From Xylona heveae TC161 (Eukaryota; Ascomycota; Xylonomycetes; Xylonales; Xylonaceae): a DNA stretch of 64,000 nt. The position numbers were made by a program, and so were the translations under genes. Where the stretch lies: contig NW_017264193.1 of the NCBI RefSeq assembly GCF_001619985.1, forward strand, positions 5,726-69,725. Direction: 5' to 3'. This document shows positions 262-10,628 of the stretch, one piece after another. The first letter of the stretch is position 1. Each line of letters begins with the position of its first letter. The notes below the pieces were generated by a model. The model saw only the letters and a list, made by a program, of their open reading frames with translations. It was not told the origin of the DNA and searched no databases.

Positions 262-1238
262 TTACCAGGGAATTTCAGTACCATCTATAACATTAAAAAA
301 CTTGCTCGATGTCTTTTCACGGGTTGCATTATCTATCTGTACTATGTTAGTTTTGTTTTTTTAATGGTGTCCTGGAATGTAAGACATACCAGACCAATGA
401 TAGCAGTAGCACTCTGCTGCATTGTATGCGGTGCCTGCTGTAGCCCCATTGCCTGGGCGGCTCGGTTTCCACCATCGGTTTGTACAAGACTGGATGGATT
501 CAGCAAGGTTAATTTTTGATTTTGTAAGGAAAGCTTACCCCGGGTGTACGGCAAAGGCAATCAACCACTTGTTCGCGCTGTGTGCAGCTCTGTCGATACT
601 AAAGTTTAGTCGAGGCTGGTAGGAGGCAGGATAGAGTAACAAACTACATACACTGTCACCCAGTTTAATCCGGCCTTAGCAATACCATAGGCCGGTGCAA
701 CGTGGGCCTTGAAGATCTCGAGGTTGCCAATAGACCCTGCAGCGCTCGTGACGGACACCCACTTTGGCACCCTAGACTTCTCAAGCAGAGGTCGAACGGC
801 CTGGTAGAGCATGAGGGGACCGATGGTGTTAACCTTGAAGAGATCGGTCACGGCATTGACATCCACCACATCCAATGGGATGATGCCCTTGTCGCCAGCA
901 CCACCTGCATTTGCAATGACCACGTCAATATGGTCGATGCCAGCAGCTTCAAGTTCCTTGACGGCATTGGCAGGGTCCGTTGAAGACGTGCTTTCAATCT
1001 GTATCAAATGCATGCGCGAACCCTTGGCCGCGGGTAGGATCGCAAGACTCCGAGCGTTCGAGGCTGTCTTGTCACGGACACTACCGATGACGATATGATT
1101 GGGCCGCAAGAGGTAGGTCTCAGCGAGAGTCTTTCCGATACCTGTAGGGAATAGCAGTTAGCTAGGACATAAAATGCACCGGGGGGATGACATGCCTCTG
1201 CTGACACCCGTGATCAAAACAATAGTGGAAGCCGTCAT
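262..1238 (-). CDS. SDR family oxidoreductase, five exons
   Basis: A classical short-chain dehydrogenase/reductase of about 252-255 residues that appears complete. Exons read on the minus strand: 1238-1196, 1141-652, 598 or 589-539, 489-390 and 336-262; both options for exon 3 keep frame. Visible motifs are the Rossmann TGVSRGIGK at the N-terminus, VIANAGG, the catalytic Ser in VTSAAGSI and the YGIAKAGLN tetrad with Tyr and Lys. The last exon restores the family's usual ending (REKTSSKF...GTEIPW). The first intron appears to begin with GC rather than GT, since only that junction restores SRGIGK. The closest relatives known to me are fungal NAD(P)-dependent ketoreductases of the nor-1/carbonyl reductase type; the substrate is unknown. 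It is divergent from the regulator to its right. The exon 2/3 junction is the least certain part. Confidence 0.85.
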
Positions 1239-2799
1239 AGTTTCTGGTGTATTTCTACTAGTTTATTGGTCGGTGATATGTTGGTGGATTCGGAGATACT
1301 TTGTGGAGCGGAACAAGATACCATATGCAAGAGAGTAATTTGTACTTCTCTTTCCATAGCTCATTTGAAGTCGGGCTAGATGGGATTTTTCAATGAAAAT
1401 ACAAGGTGCCAACTTCAATAGCGCTGATAATGCCGGAAAATGACAGGGTTTACTTATGCCTTCTAGATTACAAACGCTTATGCAATGTTGAAAGACACAT
1501 TTAAGTGAATTTGTCAATGTACCTTGACCGATTGTTAAATTGCTTCGAAATCAAATTAACATACAATACAATGATAACTAACTAGTATATCCTGATTAAC
1601 AAGCAGGGTTGAAATTCAATTGGTTGCGAATTTAGGCTTCACGACCCTGGTCTACATAAATGTTTCCGTCCCGAGCACAAAATAGTAATGAAAGAGCACC
1701 GGGAATATTGCAACCGAGGTGATTAATAATGATCACGGTAAACAATTCGCCTTTCATATGAAATCGCTGCAGGAAAAAGAGAGGGAATAATGAAAAACAA
1801 AAATTACAAGATCAGGTTTCTCTGGAGAATCGTCTTGCCCTGACTGACGTAAAACTGTTTTCAAGTATTTCGGGCCTTGCGGCAGCAAATCTCAGGCCAG
1901 CTGTGCAGCGGACAACGCCTTCGTCGATGCTTCTTTCGCAAGCCACCAGTATCTAGGCCTCGCGACATGCCCAGTGGACCGGGTGTCACTCAGAATGTCG
2001 GCTGTATGGATGAGCGGAACGAACTGCAGGACCGTTACGAGATTGCCGTATGGCACACCATTGATTAGCAGCTGCTGCGAAACATCTTCAATGCTTCCAC
2101 TATACTCCGTACCGTAGTACAGCAACGAACGACACGAAACAAAATCGCGAGCCGTTCACTTTTAATCATAGAAATCCAGATTCCTCAACTCGAGAATTCA
2201 TATCTACGGCGGGATGCCTGCTTCGCTGGGGTATGGGTGATGGATATGGTTTTATTTCCACCAATTATATATTTTCATCGTACTATTTAGTTTACAATAG
2301 CAATGTCATTACGTAGAGAATAAGCTTGGATATGTTCAAGAATTTTGTCCAAGAAAAATGCCTGTATAGAAAATAGTACATTGAGATTATTTGATTCTCG
2401 GCCACTCTTGGTTGGGGTTCGTCTCGCTATAATACCTACCTGTAGGAACTCGGTAGTCAGGTATGTTATTAGGTCCCTTAGTCGAGGGGTTGATTTGAAG
2501 CGTCATTGATACTTGTGCTTTCGCGCGAGATGTTGACCAACTCTTAAAATGCCGAAATCCTCAAAGTCTGCCTCAGGACCAATTGAACTTCGAGCAGTAA
2601 GCCTTCAATTTGTGTAGTATCTTGGTTGGCTAGTTGACGAGTAACAGTGTACAGAGTGCCGGGTAAGAAGAAAACCGATGACGTCCTTGACGATTGCCTA
2701 TTAATGATGCACATGACACGCTCTAGAAACTGAAGAGCAAAGTAAGTTGCATGAGCCAGTCTTCCTTGCAATACTATGGGTTATTAATTTGCGACATAG
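1239..2799. other. Intergenic region between SDR and broken regulator
   Basis: AT-rich, with no recognised gene. A short open frame at 1892-2125 on the minus strand could not be assigned. The segment around 2540-2742 on the plus strand should hold the first half of the regulator's zinc cluster, but no clean CxxC half can be read there (see the regulator). Confidence 0.4.
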
Positions 2800-5044
2800 T
2801 GCTCCGGAGTCGCTCCCTGCCAGTACTGTTCTCGAAGCAAAAAACCTTGCTTGTTCGACCGTCCTCCATCACGCACACCACTCACCCGGAGGTAAGTGCT
2901 GATTCCCGTTCCGACGTCAACTGCCATTCTCAAAAAAGGTAGAAATCTAGATGATGCAGAACGCCGGTGCACAAACTTGATAGCGCTTATCCGTAAACTG
3001 AATCCGGAGGTCGATATCGAGGATGCATTGAAGACAGTCTCAGGGACAGGTGTACCGGCTACAGAAGTTCTTCTCGAGAGGCTGAAGAGCGGGGATTCTG
3101 GTGGAGAAAGTCCTTCATCGCCGGACAGACTTGAGTGGGATGAAGCTTCGTTAGCTTCCTCATGGCGTGTGCAAAAGGAAGCTCCGGATGGAATGGCATC
3201 ACTTCCAAGTCAAAGCACGGGATCCGGGTATCTTGGTAAGCAATGGGGAACCGCGCTTTGTGACAATTGGTTTTAAAAAAATCCCAGGAAATAGCTCGGG
3301 ATCGAGCATTTTGAAAACTATCTCGGACTTGATTCCTGGCTTGCAGCCCCCTCAACACGAGCAAGCCTCGTTTGCACATGCCAGCCAAACAGAAGGTCCT
3401 TCGCTGTCAGCGCATTTGAGTAATACTACTGTCTTAGATCGTCTCATTGATGCCTAGTTTATGTGGTATAATCCATCATACCCGATCCTACATGAGAGTA
3501 CTTTTCGAGAAAGTTACCAGAACCGTCAGCAGATTCAAGCCCGTTCGAGCTGGCATCTTATTTTCTACCTTGTTCTAGCAATTGGGGACTGGATTCTGGG
3601 GGATGAATCAGAGATAGAGCAGTCCAGATATTACATGGTCGCACGATCACAACTGTCAATGCGTATGTTAGAGTCTGGATCTCTTCTCGCTATTCAAGCA
3701 TTTCTCCTGCTGGCAAGACCCACAAAAAGAAACGATCCCTTCCCAAGTTTTTGTTGTACTAATATAGACGCAGGGCAATTATCTCCAAAAGCGAGATCGG
3801 CCTAATACAGGGTACAATTTTATTGGAGTTGCGTACAGAATGGCACTTGGTTTAGGGCTTCATCGCGAGCCACCCGCGGAATCAACGGCTGATACACTAT
3901 TCAATGAACGGAGAAGAGTCATTTGGTGGATTGTCTTTTGCTTCGACAGTGGATTCAGCTTGACCACGGGGAGACCTATTATGGCATCTGACTGTTTTGT
4001 CGAAACTCGAATTCCACGAAACATTAACGATTCAGTATATTGAAATCATTTCCTGCTTTAGAGACTATGATGCTAATTACTTGAATATAGGAGTGTACTC
4101 TGAATTCCTTTCTTCCTGCACCAACGGAGTGGCCAACCACCTATTCAGCCATCATTGCCCACGCCCGACTAGCTTCTATTGGAAATAAAGTCTACAATGA
4201 CATATTCTCCGCCCCCAAAAAGACGCCTTACGACTTAAGAATATCGCGCTCGCTCGACCATCAGTTCAAGGCTTGGAAATTATCGCTCCCCGTCTACTTT
4301 ACAGCGCAAGACGTTCCGCATTGGTTTCGTGGTCCACGAGCGATAGTCGGGTGGAAGGAACAAAACTTGCGTATGATGCTCTGGTGGGGAAGCCAGGCCC
4401 ACTGCAACTCACTATCAGATGGTGAAGAAGTACAGAACACGTGTTACTATGCTGCAGTCGAGACTATTCACAACGTCACGACTTTCTGTCAAGACTATCC
4501 TGATACTCTCAACCTTTGTCTCACCTGGTACGTGACATACTTCTTATTTCAGGCATCAATTGTGCTTTGTATTCATCATCTCCGGCCATGCCAAACAACG
4601 AATACTAGCCTCGCGGCAACCAATCAGGATCTCTGGGATTTCTCCATAACCAGAGCACGCAACTGTCTCGCTCAATTGAGTCAAAAAAGCAAGGCTGCAA
4701 CACGATGCCTGGCAGTAGTTGATAAAATCAGGAACATATCTCAGCCGTCGGAGTCTGCGTCAACAGTACTAACGGAACCCCCTCCGGATAATTACAATGG
4801 CTCTGTCCAGCTAGAGGCTGATCTCACAAACAAGGACACTTATACAACAGCATTTGCCATAGATCCTGCACTCGAGACAATTTTCGAACGTAACTCCTCG
4901 AATATGGACATCTTTGAAGATCTTCAAGGATTCCTTAGTACAGATGAGGCTCAATCATTTGATTACTTTCTGGGAGATGCCTCGACGACCAATGATACTC
5001 AGGGTTGGTCGATGCCTGGAGACTTAAGTTTAGAACTCACATAG
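2800..5044 (+). pseudogene. Zn2Cys6 fungal transcription factor, probably inactivated
   Basis: A fungal-specific regulator of the Gal4 type. Exons with consistent phases: 2800-2891, 2943-3235, 3288-3712, 3774-4034 and 4091-5044. The first exon carries the second half of a zinc cluster (APCQYCSRSKKPC), followed by a linker and coiled-coil-like stretch (NLDDAERRC...). The middle exons give a fungal_trans domain (PF04082) with recognisable YPILHESTF, YRMALGLGLHRE and RRRVIWW...TGRP motifs. An in-frame TAG at 3455-3457 sits where relatives have an aromatic residue (IDA-stop-FMWY). The first CxxC half of the cluster is not readable upstream: the string before 2742 resembles RSRK/KLKSK only if two frames are mixed. 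The intron at 3713-3773 begins with GC and contains a TACTAAT branch site. It is most likely a recently decayed regulator of the polyol genes that follow. A sequencing error or a missed intron at 3455 would make it functional. Confidence 0.65.
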
Positions 5045-5136
5045 CTATGAACGAATGAAGTGATTTGGATTTATGTTTTGATAGATAAGAGTTGAATCAT
5101 TGTATTCCGTTATCGACTATTTATCGGACTATTGTG

Positions 5137-5162
5137 CCCCGCGTGGTGGCAATTTTGCGGGG
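5137..5162. promoter_or_regulatory. Pair of CreA-type sites in inverted orientation
   Basis: CCCCGC at 5137-5142 and GCGGGG at 5157-5162 both match the carbon-catabolite repressor consensus SYGGRG on opposite strands, 14 bp apart. They lie about 470 bp before the polyol dehydrogenase start. Closely spaced pairs are the form usually required for CreA action in Aspergillus. Assignment is by consensus only. Confidence 0.4.
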
Positions 5163-5441
5163 TGGCGAAGTTCAATATCGACTATGTATACAGCACATGT
5201 AATGGCGGGAGTAGTACTCGCGGTTGACAGCAAGAGTTGGAAAGCCTTATTTTAGGTAGTAAACTCGCTAATCTTTAGTCACACCCAGTAACTCCGAGCT
5301 CACTGAGATAACTACCTACCTTCCTTACTGGTAGCTACCTACATGCAGATGATGTATCCAACCAGGATGAGCCGGCTGCTTATGAAGTTTAGCATTTATT
5401 GTCTTTTCGAATTTACATTACCGTTGTCGATAGCCACGTAC

Positions 5442-5466
5442 TTGTCGGACCACAGTCGGCCGACAA
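5442..5466. promoter_or_regulatory. CGG-N11-CCG palindrome (Gal4-type site)
   Basis: A perfect 7-bp inverted repeat, TTGTCGG and CCGACAA, surrounds an 11-nt spacer, giving CGG-N11-CCG. This is the half-site spacing bound by some Zn2Cys6 dimers such as Gal4. It lies about 165 bp before the start codon and 70 bp before a TATA box. The same core occurs before the next two genes. Confidence 0.6.
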
Positions 5467-5532
5467 ATTGATCAACATCGGAATTTGCATGTCCTGGGTA
5501 AATATTAAACATACTGTGCAGTCAAAACTCAG

Positions 5533-5540
5533 TATATAAG
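5533..5540 (+). promoter_or_regulatory. TATA box of polyol dehydrogenase gene
   Basis: TATATAAG about 90 nt before the start codon at 5629. Position and sequence fit a fungal core promoter. Confidence 0.5.
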
Positions 5541-5628
5541 AAGTCGCCTTCCGCCAGCAGGATGAGCGCAATAGGTTTCTTTTTATGACCAGCTGGATAA
5601 GGATCCTGCAATTTGCAACCCAAATATC

Positions 5629-6822
5629 ATGGACTCAGATGCCAAAAATCCATCATGTCTTCTCTATGGACCGCTGGACGCCCGATTTGAGGATCGACCT
5701 GTCCCTGTACTTAGCGACCCACACGATGTCATTCTCCGCATTGCTTATACAGGTGTTTGTGGAAGCGATGTAAGTACCTTCACTCTGCAGCTATTATTGA
5801 TAAGACCTGCGATCCCCCGACCATTGCTAGATTTACTCGAGAAGACATGCTAAACATTTTATTACTTTTGATTAAAGGTTCATTTCTGGCTGGATGGAGG
5901 AATTCGTACTTATGTTTCTGAAGCCCGACCATTGACCATGGGTCATGAAGCATCTGGAACTATCCATGCAGTGGGCTCTGCCGTCAGTTCGCTGGTCCCG
6001 GGAGACAAGGTTGCCATTGAACCGGGATATCCATGTAGCCGTTGTGAACGCTGCAAATCCGGTCGTTACCATCTTTGCCCGGAAATGAAATTCGCGGCAG
6101 ATCCTCCAAAGGTTCATGGCACCCTCTCGAAATATTTTCTGTTGCCTGCCAGCTTTTGCTACAAGCTGCCTGAAAGCATCAGTTTGTCTGAAGCCGCCTT
6201 GATGGAGCCTTTAGCAGTTGCTGTACATGCAATTCGGCTCGCAGACATAAAGCCCGGAAGTCGTGTTATTGTGTTCGGTGCCGCAACGGTTGGATTGTTC
6301 TGTGCTGCTGTGGCCCGGGAATTTGGAGCAAGCACCGTCGTCTCAGTGGACATTTTGGAGCACAAGCTACGCTTTGCACAAAAGTTTGTCGGTTCATCAG
6401 TGGGGAGAACTGCAATGCCAGATTCCTCCCTAACCCCGGAGGAAAATGCGAAACGTCTGGTGGAGGAGCACCAGCTTGGAGAGGGAGCAGACATTGCCAT
6501 AGATGCATCCGGAGCAGAAGCATCAGTTCAAACAGCCATCTTTGCGTTGCGAATGGGCGGAACATTTGTTCAAGTAGGCATGGGAAAGCGGAAAATTGAA
6601 TTCCCGATATCAGAATTGTGTGAACACGAGATAACAGCAAGAGGTAGCTTCCGATACGGTGCTGGAGATTTCGACCTAGGAATTCGCCTTGTAGGTCAGG
6701 GAAAGATCATATTGTCAGGGATAATTACGAAAGTATTCCCATTCGAGTCGGCAACCGAAGCCTGGGAAACAGCAAAGCGTGGTGAAGGAACCAAAACATT
6801 GATTGAAGGACCCAGGAATTGA
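5629..6822 (+). CDS. Zn-dependent polyol dehydrogenase (xylitol/sorbitol dehydrogenase-like)
   Basis: A medium-chain dehydrogenase of 361 residues in two exons, 5629-5769 and 5878-6822. Catalytic zinc ligands are visible: Cys44 in GVCGSD, His70-Glu71 in MGHE and the Glu of MEPLAV. The four structural-zinc cysteines lie in PCSRCERCKSGRYHLC. The coenzyme fold has GAATVGLFC and an Asp in VSVDILEHK, which favours NAD over NADP. Length and motifs fit fungal xylitol, sorbitol or L-arabitol dehydrogenases, which oxidise polyols to ketoses; I cannot decide between them. It begins a run of three plus-strand oxidoreductases, and its promoter holds a CGG-N11-CCG palindrome and paired CreA sites, consistent with induction by a sugar or polyol and glucose repression. 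Confidence 0.9.
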
Positions 6823-7483
6823 ATACAACTTGAAGTTAAACGTTTTTATAAGTACAGAATATAATAATGTATTTTTTTTTGTTGTTGTTGTTTTCCTGCT
6901 TTCCAATTTAACTTCATGTGATAACTATACAAGCTCACTCCCCCGACAATAGTTCCGAGTAGAATTGTGGACTTTGATACTTTATAGGAATGCAGGGCTC
7001 TTTCAGTCTCTCAGGACTTGCAAGAGAAGATATGGCCGATAGGCTTTGTAGAAGGGTGACATCCTTGCCGATCTCTCGGACAAAATATGAAAGGAAAATG
7101 TTGATATGATGATAACCATAATACTCCTATTGACATGACCACATGCGTCAGGTAGATAAAGGATGCTACAGATACAGTGCTCAAGCTATTACTATTGATT
7201 TTAAACCGCTGTATCCATTGTTGTTGATCCATCCCTTAATTCATCGCTTTCTTCGACACTTTCGACTATAAGACTGGGTTTGAGTAAATGAGCGCGGACT
7301 TCGTCTCCGTTAACAAGATCATTTTGATCGGCTCTAAATACTGCTGCTTCCCAAGAACTCTCAATTCCCGACACAATATGCCTCTTGGCGATCCGTTTCC
7401 GCGCCAAGATAGGGTTGACATCAACGAACAGCCTGGTCAGGCTTTGGCCTAGCGCTCTTGGGAAACGCTGCCAACAACTGTTT
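6823..7483. other. Intergenic region
   Basis: Contains the 3' end of the dehydrogenase gene, a T-run with GTT repeats near 6870-6895 and the distal promoter of the next gene. Open frames on the minus strand here match no family I know. Confidence 0.4.
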
Positions 7484-7500
7484 CGGGTGACAGGGCACCG
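7484..7500. promoter_or_regulatory. CGG-N11-CCG motif before the second SDR
   Basis: CGG at 7484 and CCG at 7498, separated by exactly 11 nt, lie 107 nt before the start codon. The flanks differ from the other two copies (TTTCGG and CCGATG), so on its own it could be chance. With the two extended copies it supports a shared regulator. Confidence 0.45.
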
Positions 7501-7535
7501 ATGCCAAATTGATCGTAGAGAGTCGACTCCCTTTG

Positions 7536-7543
7536 TATAAATA
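7536..7543 (+). promoter_or_regulatory. TATA box of second SDR gene
   Basis: TATAAATA about 64 nt before the start codon at 7607. Confidence 0.45.
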
Positions 7544-7606
7544 GGGCTAGATGAACGGGAAATATTGTCTACCAAGATCAACGCTTCTAAAAAGGGACAC
7601 GTCAAG

Positions 7607-8657
7607 ATGTCCATGTCTGTTGAAGATTGTACACAGGCCCGTGAGGGGTTCCCACGTCCTTACCCCAACACCCCTTCTAATGTCCTGGAACAACTCCGTT
7701 TGACTGGGAAAGTGGTTGTTGTCAACGGCGCTGCCGATGGCATTGGTCTGGCTGTGGCGGAGGCCATGGCTGAAGCCAATGCAAACGTTGCCCTGTGGTA
7801 CAATTCGTATGGCATCACTCTCTGAAGCCTCAACGCACATTTGTTTAACAACGATTTTAAACAGGAACGAAGCTGCAGTTGAAAGGTCCCAAGCTTTAGC
7901 AAAAATTCATAACGTGAAGACGGCGGCCTACAAGGTTGAGGGTAAGCAAATATTGAAGAAGAGATTAATGACCAAATACTAAGTGGAGAAATTTAGTTTC
8001 GGATCACAATCAGGTGTATGAAGCTATTGCAACGGTTGTCCGAGATTTTGGAAAGATCGATGTTTTCATTGCCAACGCGGGTACGCTACTGCAGTAGAGG
8101 CTTCCATAGAGGGTGGAGCTGACTTTTGACAAAGGAATGGCAATTTCAAAGCCCATCTTGGAGCAGACTGTTGACGAATACCGAAAACAGATGTCTGTAA
8201 ATGGTTGGTGCTCAAGTTCAATTGTGATACTGAGAATTATACTAATTCGTACACAGTTGACGGTGTTCTCTTTTGCGCCAAGTACGCTGGAGAAGTGTTC
8301 AAACGGCAAGGCTTTGGCAATCTTATCATCACTTCGAGTATGAGTGGCCACACTGTGAATGTCCCTGTCGACCAGCCGGTGTACAACGCAAGCAAAGCAT
8401 TTGTCACCCATTTTGGAAAGTCACTAGCACGTGAGTGGCGGGAATTTGCTCGAGTAAACATTGTCTCACCCGGCTTCTTCGATACCAAAATGGGTGCTAG
8501 CCCACTGGCCATGCACGAGGCATATCGTATGTCGTCGCTGGGTAGGCAAGGTCATGTAAAGGAGATCAAGGGCTTGTACCTTTATCTGGCCAGTGATGCC
8601 TCTAGCTATATGACGGGGACTGATGTGCTTATCGACGGTGGCTATGTTCTGCCGTGA
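7607..8657 (+). CDS. L-xylulose/sorbose reductase-like SDR, five exons
   Basis: A complete SDR of 276 residues. Exons 7607-7806, 7865-7941, 7997-8080, 8135-8203 and 8257-8657 sum to whole codons. Motifs: VVNGAADGIGLA for the dinucleotide, IANAG, catalytic Ser in ITSSMSGH, YNASK with Tyr and Lys, and the family ending DASSYMTGTDVLIDGG. The SMSGH and EFARVN...SPG strings resemble fungal L-xylulose reductase and NADP mannitol/sorbose reductases, which interconvert ketoses and polyols. The first in-frame ATG with a good context (TCAAGATG) was chosen; no ATG lies further upstream in frame. It lies 0.8 kb downstream of the zinc polyol dehydrogenase in the same orientation, with its own TATA box and CGG-N11-CCG site. 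Confidence 0.9.
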
Positions 8658-9280
8658 AGTAACTGAGAGGGTTTTATAGATCATAGATGATTGCCATAGA
8701 TATTGATGTTAGCAAATTTGATGCATGGATAGACTAGTCTAACGGGTCAGCATACGTGTCAATTTACCTCTCTACAAAGCCAATGAAGTAATTTGAGTTA
8801 TATGAATACATGTCTTCCATATGGATGTAGAATATGTTTATTGATAGACCTAGGGTCGTAGATGCAGCCCGAGCTCTCTGAGACGATGCCATTCTAAATC
8901 ATGTTTTGGGAGTGACAACATCGATAGGAAATACAATGCTTTAAGTCAAAGAGTCTATGTCCTTTCAATTTTTCTGATTCTTTTTCAGGGTTATCTTCTC
9001 AATGGTATCTTTGAAATATGCTACCATTATAAGCCTTAGGTAAACAATAGCACGACTTTTTATAAGGGAAAACTTTCTAGTGTTATAGAAAATAGCTTGA
9101 TGAATTAAATTTAATAATCAGTTATCGAAGTATACTAATAATGATATGAAATTTATAGAGAGAAATAAATTAACTTGAATTTCTGTGAGAAAAAAAAGTA
9201 TAAAATAAAATAAATAAAAGCTGGACGTGTTGATAGCGAGCTGTCAAGCAGAGTTAAACTGAAACAGGTCAGAAGCATTC
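8658..9280. other. AT-rich intergenic region
   Basis: About 620 bp, very AT-rich between 9000 and 9230, with A-runs and (AAAAT)-like repeats near 9190-9220. No gene is recognised. Confidence 0.5.
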
Positions 9281-9301
9281 GTCGGCAAGATGTGCTCCGA
9301 C
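9281..9301. promoter_or_regulatory. GTCGG-N11-CCGAC palindrome before the arabinitol dehydrogenase-like gene
   Basis: GTCGG at 9281-9285 and CCGAC at 9297-9301 are separated by 11 nt. These are the same five-base arms and spacing found before the zinc polyol dehydrogenase. It lies about 416 bp upstream of the start codon at 9717. Confidence 0.6.
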
Positions 9302-9716
9302 TACCACGAAACTCTTCCTTTCTATTGGCCACGCTTCCTGAGAAGCCGTCACCGGTGCTCTCTACTCCGAAACAGGTATCAAAGTATCTGCGAAGGTTAT
9401 CGCCTCCTCATGTGTTCCCAACGGGTAGCCAAAGTCTATAATCGGCGTCTCCACCAACTGCTACTCCATCACGTATACTTCGGAATACATTTGTCCGATG
9501 CTCACCAAAGAAAGATGGATGCGCGGTGCCTTGTTGAGGCTGAGGCAAGACGCAGTCAACACGCCCAGATGACTACAACAATCACTTCCTGTCGCATGCA
9601 ACTTGGCTATATCTGACCCTCATCGGAATTCCATTTTCGACTTCTAGATGTTTGTACTCGTCTTTCATTCACCAGAATAGAAGCATTGACGGACTATCTG
9701 TCCCGCTGTAACATAG

Positions 9717-10628
9717 ATGGCGCCTTCAGCGGAGCTCCCTGGGCGCGACGCGCTTACTTCTCGCATCGTCCCTTCGATGGTCCTTAGCGATGGCAGCCCT
9801 TCGTCGTTGACAGCGGCACCAACATCCATAATCCAGGCCGATCCGCACGTTGGGGCTCAGAAAAGGTTCTCTGTGCGGGGGAACGCCGTGGTCACCGGAG
9901 GCGCTGGATCCCTTGGCCTGTACGCCTGTGACGCACTCCTCGAGCATGGTCTCCAAGGGCTCATGATCTTCGATGTCAACCCGGCCAATTCCCAGAAAGA
10001 GATTGTGCAAATGCGAGAAAAATTTCCCGAGACCAATATATCTACATTAAAGGTCGATATCACTGCTGAAGAAGCCGTCAATGAGGCCATGGAGGAGACC
10101 GTCCGTGTGCTCGGGTCCGTCGATATCCTGGTCAACTTCGTCGGCGTGGTGGGCTGTATGGAAAGCCTCGAGATGCCGGCATCTCAATGGCGCAAGATAA
10201 TCGATATAAATACAACTGGCACATTCATCTGTGCTCAGGCAGCGGCGCGGCAAATGGTCAAGCAGGGAAAAGGAGGCTCCATTACCTTTGTGGCATCTAT
10301 CTCAGCTCATCGAGTCAATTTTCCCCAGCCGCAGGCGGCATACAATGTTAGCAAGGCGGCTCTTTTGATGCTTAAAAGCTGCCTGGCAGCAGAATGGGCT
10401 CGTTATGGCATTCGCACCAATAGTGTGAGTCCTGGATACATGGATACAATATTGAATGAGGGTGATGGCATTGCACACCATCGTCAAATTTGGGCGGAGA
10501 GAAATCCTAGTGGAAGGATGGGAAGTCCATCCGAATTGACAGGGGCCATTGTTCTCCTTGCAAGCAGTGCAGGGTCATACATTAATGGTTCAGACATTGT
10601 TGTTGACGGTGGTGCTATTGTGTTTTAG
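9717..10628 (+). CDS. D-arabinitol/mannitol dehydrogenase-like SDR
   Basis: A single-exon SDR of 303 residues. After about 50 residues of low-complexity N-terminus (possibly a targeting peptide), the fold begins with VVTGGAGSLG. An Asp in IFDVNP follows the second strand, which suggests NAD use. The catalytic Ser lies in SITFVASISAHR and the Tyr/Lys pair in AAYNVSKAA. The C-terminus has the usual INGSDIVVDGG. The overall pattern fits fungal arabinitol, mannitol or sorbose dehydrogenases. With the two genes before it, it would let a polyol such as D-arabinitol or xylitol enter through D-xylulose or D-ribulose. The 416-bp upstream region holds the conserved palindrome. A second Met at residue 20 is an alternative start. 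Confidence 0.88.
   Translation: MAPSAELPGRDALTSRIVPSMVLSDGSPSSLTAAPTSIIQADPHVGAQKRFSVRGNAVVTGGAGSLGLYACDALLEHGLQGLMIFDVNPANSQKEIVQMREKFPETNISTLKVDITAEEAVNEAMEETVRVLGSVDILVNFVGVVGCMESLEMPASQWRKIIDINTTGTFICAQAAARQMVKQGKGGSITFVASISAHRVNFPQPQAAYNVSKAALLMLKSCLAAEWARYGIRTNSVSPGYMDTILNEGDGIAHHRQIWAERNPSGRMGSPSELTGAIVLLASSAGSYINGSDIVVDGGAIVF

What the first reader, a model, noticed from the sequence alone, without database searches (positions are those of the whole stretch)
5442..9301. One CGG-N11-CCG motif before each of three clustered polyol oxidoreductase genes
CGG-N11-CCG occurs at 5446-5462, 7484-7500 and 9283-9299, once in each promoter. Two of the three share five-base arms, GTCGG-N11-CCGAC, and the first is a perfect 7-bp inverted repeat. 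CGG-N11-CCG is expected about once per 4 kb by chance, but the five-base-arm form only about once per million positions. A shared Zn2Cys6 dimer controlling a local sugar-alcohol regulon is the simplest explanation.
Basis: partly seen in the sequence, partly recalled or inferred. Interest (0 to 1): 0.78.

Follow-up and report, generated by a model that had tools for sequence, protein, structure and literature searches.

The report
Gal4-type switch sites in polyol cluster
In the fungus Xylona heveae a small cluster of sugar-alcohol enzyme genes carries seven copies of the DNA site that Gal4-like regulators recognise, next to a gene for just such a regulator, which itself carries a stop codon part-way through.

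Summary
The three motifs are real and at the stated places, but "one per promoter" is wrong. The intergenic DNA of the cluster holds seven CGG-N11-CCG sites (1+2+1+3), four of them with TCGG/CCGA arms. The spacing is the strong evidence. In those 3,727 bp, N11 occurs 7 times, while the 24 other spacers from 0 to 24 together give 4. It ranks first of 1,600 triplet-spacer combinations. There is no clear genome-wide excess, and stretches before five polyol-type paralogues hold no armed site, so any regulon looks local.

The genome matches Xylona heveae TC161. The adjacent gene encodes a Zn2Cys6 regulator whose DNA-binding half resembles Lac9/Gal4, with the same nine-residue linker. In print that linker sets the spacing, and Aspergillus RhaR binds CGG-X11-CCG. 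Its kin share contigs with the same enzyme genes in other fungi. The DNA-binding half is intact but partly encoded by two 15-nt microexons. A TAG at codon 211 cuts off the regulatory domain, whose remnant looks relaxed.

Best reading: an ordinary Gal4-type local regulon whose own regulator is truncated in this assembly. Binding is inferred, not shown.

The parts
1700..1716 (.). CGG-N11-CCG site between the minus-strand SDR gene and the regulator gene (3-bp arms)
2549..5044 (+). Zn2Cys6 regulator gene. Exons 2549-2596, 2648-2662 (15 nt), 2727-2741 (15 nt), 2800-2891, 2943-3235, 3288-3712 (then a GC-AG intron), 3774-4034, 4091-5044 (my model, guided by P0001 and homologues). In-frame TAG at 3455-3457
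   Evidence: PF04082
2648..2741 (+). two 15-nt microexons (2648-2662 and 2727-2741) coding CTECR and KLKSK, the first half of the zinc cluster
3455..3457 (+). TAG at codon 211, where 114 of 117 homologues with a residue in that column have Tyr (2 Phe, 1 Met; 3 of 120 gapped)
5125..5141 (.). CGG-N11-CCG site between regulator and gene 1 (3-bp arms)
5442..5466 (.). TTGTCGG-N11-CCGACAA, perfect 7-bp arms, about 70 bp before TATATAA (5533) and 163 bp before the gene 1 ATG
5464..5473 (+). CAAATTGATC beside the gene 1 site, shared with the gene 2 promoter
5629..6822 (+). gene 1: zinc-dependent polyol dehydrogenase of the sorbitol/xylitol dehydrogenase type, intron 5770-5877, reading frame intact
7483..7501 (.). 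TCGG-N11-CCGA, about 35 bp before TATAAAT (7536) and 106 bp before the gene 2 ATG
7505..7514 (+). CAAATTGATC beside the gene 2 site
7607..8657 (+). gene 2: SDR of the NADP-mannitol dehydrogenase / L-xylulose reductase type, five exons, frame intact
9281..9301 (.). GTCGG-N11-CCGAC, 416 bp before the gene 3 ATG
9353..9369 (.). CGG-N11-CCG site (3-bp arms) before gene 3
9480..9498 (.). TCGG-N11-CCGA before gene 3
9717..10628 (+). gene 3: SDR; some named kin are called D-arabinitol 2-dehydrogenase or sorbose reductase SOU1; no intron

Best explanation
The seven CGG-N11-CCG sites are upstream activating sites of a small pathway-specific regulon. A Gal4-type Zn2Cys6 regulator of the family encoded at 2549-5044 would bind them as a dimer, one zinc cluster per CGG, with its nine-residue linker and coiled coil setting the 11-bp gap. 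It would switch on three clustered polyol/ketose oxidoreductases, and possibly itself, when the inducing polyol or sugar is present. In this assembly the regulator gene has a TAG at codon 211. The likely product keeps the DNA-binding and dimerising part but lacks the regulatory domain, so the sites are either relics of a recently lost control or now hold a truncated occupant. Shown: the sites, their spacer-specific excess, the domain, linker and stop codon, co-residence in other fungi. Inferred: binding, activation, inducer, effect of the stop.
For: Spacer scan 7 v 4 in 24 other spacers. First of 1,600 triplet-spacer pairs, Poisson p 3e-8 before correction, next 1.8e-4. DNA-binding half matches LAC9 (E 5e-7) and GAL4 (E 1.5e-5) with no gap in the linker. 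Nine-residue linker in 60 of the 60 listed proteins in which zinc cluster and linker parse, of 120 examined; one of the 60 is the deposited X. heveae model itself. RhaR of A. nidulans binds CGG-X11-CCG, and the linker is said to fix the spacing (PMC4245848, abstract and passages). Regulator and enzyme kin share contig lengths, with neighbouring locus tags in several fungi. TATA boxes lie downstream of the sites for genes 1 and 2, though none was found by the same pattern before gene 3. All three enzyme frames are intact.
Against: No clear genome-wide excess of any form of the motif. The regulator is truncated by a stop. Conservation of the sites in relatives could not be tested: no other fungal genome was reachable here. 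No binding or expression data. Three of the seven sites have only the bare 3-bp arms.
Confidence: 0.78

Rival explanations
1. The sites work, but in this strain another Gal4-type factor acts on them in trans, for example the paralogue at C6:1,403,622-1,404,104 (43% identical over 161 aa), whose linker between the last Cys and the LTR motif is also nine residues.
For: The paralogue exists and its listed exons are open (linker counted by eye). The local gene is truncated. The enzyme genes are intact.
Against: The paralogue's neighbours look like a kinase and a membrane protein, not polyol genes (read by eye). In a genome search with the local DNA-binding region only the local gene matches strongly (next E 1.8e-4).
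Confidence: 0.12
2. Relic: the regulator died recently, the enzymes are constitutive or silent, and the sites persist without use.
For: TAG in the regulator. The part after the stop breaks conserved positions more often than in homologues (17 of 168 v 100 of 4,581 pooled), while the part before it breaks none (0 of 42 v 23 of 1,182).
Against: Only one clear lesion. The DNA-binding half keeps all 42 conserved positions, and the enzymes and sites are intact.
Confidence: 0.3
3. The TAG is an assembly or strain-specific error and the regulator is whole in nature.
For: A single in-frame stop in an otherwise open frame of 700 codons.
Against: The excess of broken conserved positions after the stop. 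The deposited model P0001 also leaves this stretch out, but it comes from the same assembly and is no independent check.
Confidence: 0.25
4. Chance clustering of a common short motif.
For: No clear genome-wide enrichment; a dense group exists elsewhere.
Against: Spacer specificity, arms, shuffles and background windows. Four armed sites within 4.05 kb are expected about 0.01 times in the genome (my arithmetic from 344 sites).
Confidence: 0.03

Closest known systems
Gal4 / Lac9 (Saccharomyces, Kluyveromyces; host names recalled) and the CGG-N11-CCG upstream activating site
   Same: Zinc-cluster sequence, ungapped nine-residue linker to PLTR; N11 inverted CGG pair as Gal4's consensus (PMC8067546, passages)
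   Different: Controls polyol oxidoreductases, not GAL genes; part of the zinc cluster lies on two 15-nt microexons; truncated here
RhaR of Aspergillus nidulans (PMC4245848; abstract and passages seen)
   Same: Filamentous-fungus Zn2Cys6 regulator that binds CGG-X11-CCG
   Different: L-rhamnose genes; whether RhaR is an orthologue was not tested
GALLAC cluster with Lac9_2 in Candida intermedia (PMC11497787; passages seen)
   Different: Yeast, galactose/lactose genes, working regulator
Xlr2 microexon switch in Trichoderma virens (PMC11121469; outline, abstract and passages seen)
   Different: Xlr2 has a 20-nt microexon and is an 895-aa protein; here two in-frame 15-nt microexons; regulated skipping here is not shown

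Membership tests
Gal4-type Zn2Cys6 regulator | CX2CX6CX5-12CX2CX6-9C zinc cluster | tested here: met
   Met in the spliced sequence through the two microexons
Gal4-type Zn2Cys6 regulator | nine-residue linker to (P)LTR, as in Gal4 and Lac9 | tested here: met
   Ungapped alignment to LAC9 and GAL4; 60 of 60 that parse, of 120
Gal4-type Zn2Cys6 regulator | coiled-coil dimerisation element | tested here: inconclusive
   Similarity to GAL4 runs through that stretch; no coil prediction made
Gal4-type Zn2Cys6 regulator | Fungal_trans regulatory domain (PF04082) in the product | tested here: not met
   Present in the read-through sequence but after the TAG at codon 211
Gal4-type Zn2Cys6 regulator | binds CGG-N11-CCG as a dimer | not testable with these tools
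   Needs EMSA or DAP-seq
Local (cluster-bound) regulon | sites concentrated before cluster genes, not before kin elsewhere | tested here: met
   7 sites in 3,727 bp; 1 bare and 0 armed sites in stretches of 2.0-2.2 kb before 5 of the 10 paralogue loci
Local (cluster-bound) regulon | sites conserved in relatives | not testable with these tools
   No other fungal genome reachable; one viral-contig scan found no relative
RhaR orthologue | lies beside L-rhamnose pathway genes | tested here: inconclusive
   Neighbours are one zinc-dependent dehydrogenase and two SDRs; RhaR sequence not compared

The most novel reading that the evidence does not exclude
A natural 'Gal4 stub'. The TAG may have turned the cluster's activator into a 210-residue DNA-binding, dimerising protein without a regulatory domain, still kept by selection and sitting on the seven N11 sites as a repressor or place-holder. 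The split of its zinc cluster over two frame-keeping 15-nt microexons, which 11 of 120 homologue models drop in whole units, would give the family a second switch: skipping either removes DNA binding without breaking the frame.
Probability: 0.17. Interest if true: 0.62.

Novelty: new member of a known kind. Interest (0 to 1): 0.42.

Why it matters
It gives a testable regulator, site and target set for a polyol gene cluster that recurs in other Ascomycota and for which my paper searches found no description. It also shows spacer length predicted from a Gal4-type linker being read straight from promoters. The truncated regulator beside intact sites and enzymes is a ready case of a regulon caught while losing or re-using its control.

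Tried and rejected
A genome-wide regulon: rejected for now. There is no clear excess over reversed controls, and stretches of 2.0-2.2 kb before five paralogues held one bare site and none with arms. The genes behind the other GTCGG sites were not named; 20 of the 23 outside the window were fetched, and at least 9 of those 20 lie in open frames of 300 codons or more.

A broken zinc cluster: my first reading of the exon-intron layout suggested a lost splice site; the deposited model P0001 showed the two microexons and settled it.

The TAG as the end of a short intron: the stretch I considered (3420-3457, 38 nt) would shift the frame and remove conserved residues; rejected by inspection.

Horizontal gain of the cluster: the regulator falls among Eurotiales in the tree, but a tree that holds the Eurotiales together is rejected only weakly or not at all (AU p 0.040; 0.14 with A. 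coremiiformis left out of the group), and the enzyme trees are unresolved. Left open.

Promoter duplication as the cause of the shared CAAATTGATC: the alignment of the two promoters shows no other run that convinces me (judged by eye).

Rfam (gathering threshold) and tRNA scans of the window found nothing. The sugar-transporter search was not followed up. Paper searches for this regulator or cluster; none of the listings named it, and the library lacks most subscription journals. Searches (Xylona genome papers; Gal4 spacing) were other searches.
Full report
WHERE IT IS. The window is bases 5,726-69,725 of a 3,318,606-base contig in a 24.28-Mb genome. Homologue listings give proteins from a contig of exactly that length: P0001 and P0121 are named Xylona heveae TC161, and P0121 and P0241 are 100% identical to genes 2 and 3 (P0241 carries no name). 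X. heveae is a Xylonomycete. The finding lies near the contig end; the 5,725 bases before the window read N.

THE OBSERVATION. But the intergenic DNA of the cluster (1250-2549, 5045-5628, 6823-7606, 8658-9716; 3,727 bp) holds seven CGG-N11-CCG sites, in numbers 1, 2, 1 and 3. Four have arms of at least four bases and one of these has seven. The bodies of the regulator gene and genes 1-3 hold none.

IS IT CHANCE? The best control is the spacer. With the same triplets and every spacer from 0 to 24, the same DNA gives seven matches at 11 and four at the other spacers together. Among 64 triplets times 25 spacers, CGG-N11 is first with p 3e-8, the next being 1.8e-4. None of 5,000 dinucleotide shuffles reached seven. 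None of 278 overlapping windows of equal length from 223 kb of this genome reached seven at N11, the largest being four; one of 6,950 window-spacer cells reached seven, at spacer 0. Only 19 of those windows have under 46% G+C, while the cluster's intergenic DNA has 41%. That background leans towards N11, because 20 of its pieces were fetched for holding a site. On the other side, genome-wide counts against the reversed pattern show no clear excess (25 v 26, 344 v 308, 4,933 v 6,162), and plain CGG-N11-CCG can be dense elsewhere: a stretch of 50.6% G+C that I picked for density has ten, against a mean of 2.5 at other spacers.

THE GENES. Gene 1 is a zinc-dependent dehydrogenase closest among solved structures to sorbitol and xylitol dehydrogenases. 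Gene 2 is an SDR whose kin include proteins called NADP-mannitol dehydrogenase or L-xylulose reductase. Gene 3 is an SDR whose kin include proteins called D-arabinitol 2-dehydrogenase or sorbose reductase SOU1; most are just 'oxidoreductase', 'hypothetical protein' or unnamed. All three frames are whole. These names are annotations; the substrate is not known.

THE REGULATOR. The gene at 2549-5044 encodes a Zn2Cys6 protein. Its first part matches Lac9 and Gal4, with no gap between the last cysteine and the PLTR that follows. That linker is nine residues in all 60 listed proteins in which zinc cluster and linker parse, of 120 examined, one of them the X. heveae model itself. In print, the linker sets the distance between the CGG triplets, and RhaR of A. 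nidulans binds CGG-X11-CCG (PMC4245848, abstract and passages); Gal4's consensus is CGG-N11-CCG (PMC8067546, passages). So the protein next door predicts the spacer that the promoters show.

SAME COMPANY ELSEWHERE. In the rows that I copied by eye (53, 36 and 33 of 120 each), 22 contig lengths are shared by regulator and gene 2, 22 by regulator and gene 3, and 15 by genes 2 and 3; four are shared by all three. Some contigs are short (25,541, 45,086, 57,987, 63,622 and 69,203 bases). Locus tags are neighbours in Cosmosporella (Fc.00g000460 regulator, 470 gene 3, 480 gene 2), Neonectria magnoliae (QQZ08_002549 gene 2, 002550 regulator) and a genome listed as Lasiodiplodia mahajangana (O1611_g188 regulator, g189 gene 3). 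Two Aspergillus models fuse an SDR with the regulator (P0028, P0029). Equal contig length is an inference of co-residence, and on long contigs it does not prove closeness.

THE STOP. A TAG at 3455-3457 is codon 211 of 700. Of 117 homologues with a residue there, 114 have Tyr. The deposited model P0001 leaves this stretch out and with it part of the regulatory domain. Before the stop the protein keeps all 42 conserved positions; after it, it breaks 17 of 168, against 23 of 1,182 and 100 of 4,581 pooled in 28 chosen homologues. Its ratio of later to earlier divergence is the highest of 29 sequences, 0.78 against 0.70 for the next. This points to relaxed constraint after the stop, but X. heveae is also the taxonomic outlier, one homologue (P0038) comes close after the stop with 14 of 167, the within-protein contrast is modest (Fisher p 0.027), and a sequencing error cannot be excluded.

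MICROEXONS. The zinc cluster is split: exon 1 ends ...ELRA, then 15 nt CTECR, 15 nt KLKSK, then CSGVAPC.... In 11 of 120 listed models the homologous units are missing exactly at these borders (the second unit in P0007, P0012, P0022, P0031, P0043, P0045, P0052; both in P0015; the first in P0018, P0036, P0047, counted by eye); 73 of 120 have the whole cluster, and others lack it in other ways. So the layout looks conserved, though I saw proteins and not the DNA of those fungi. Either gene callers miss the exons or some are truly skipped. A microexon switch in a Gal4-like domain is reported in Trichoderma Xlr2 (PMC11121469, outline, abstract and passages).

SCOPE. The regulon looks local. Stretches of 2.0-2.2 kb before five of ten polyol-type paralogue loci hold one bare CGG-N11-CCG and no armed site. 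The promoters of genes 1 and 2 also share CAAATTGATC, beginning two and five bases after the end of the CCG. TCGG-N11-CCGA followed by CAAATTGATC within 28 bases occurs twice in the genome, both here, and 0 times reversed; by my arithmetic about 0.02 would be expected. This pairing was noticed first and tested afterwards.

VERDICT. An ordinary kind of thing, well supported by spacer specificity: sites for a Gal4-type regulator in its own metabolic cluster. The uncommon part is that this regulator is cut short while its sites, its DNA-binding half and its targets stay whole. Whether that is loss, error or a new use is open. Binding, induction and inducer are untested.

Noticed in passing
2648-2662 and 2727-2741: Two consecutive 15-nt microexons encode the first half of the zinc cluster; 11 of 120 listed homologue models lack one or both exactly at the same borders.
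   Followed up: partly
5464-5473 and 7505-7514: CAAATTGATC directly after the CGG-N11-CCG sites of genes 1 and 2; the pairing with TCGG-N11-CCGA occurs only here in the genome.
   Followed up: partly
606-1238, minus strand: Another SDR gene facing the regulator; its reading frame ends soon after the Y-x3-K region, so it may be truncated (by eye).
   Followed up: no
3713-3773: The regulator has an intron with a GC-AG border in my model.
   Followed up: no
2549-5044: In the tree the regulator falls among Aspergillus and Penicillium sequences although Xylona is a Xylonomycete; horizontal gain is possible but weakly supported.
   Followed up: partly
L044 (C1:351,500-358,500): Ten CGG-N11-CCG in 7 kb, the commonest spacer there too; picked for density, not explained.
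   Followed up: no
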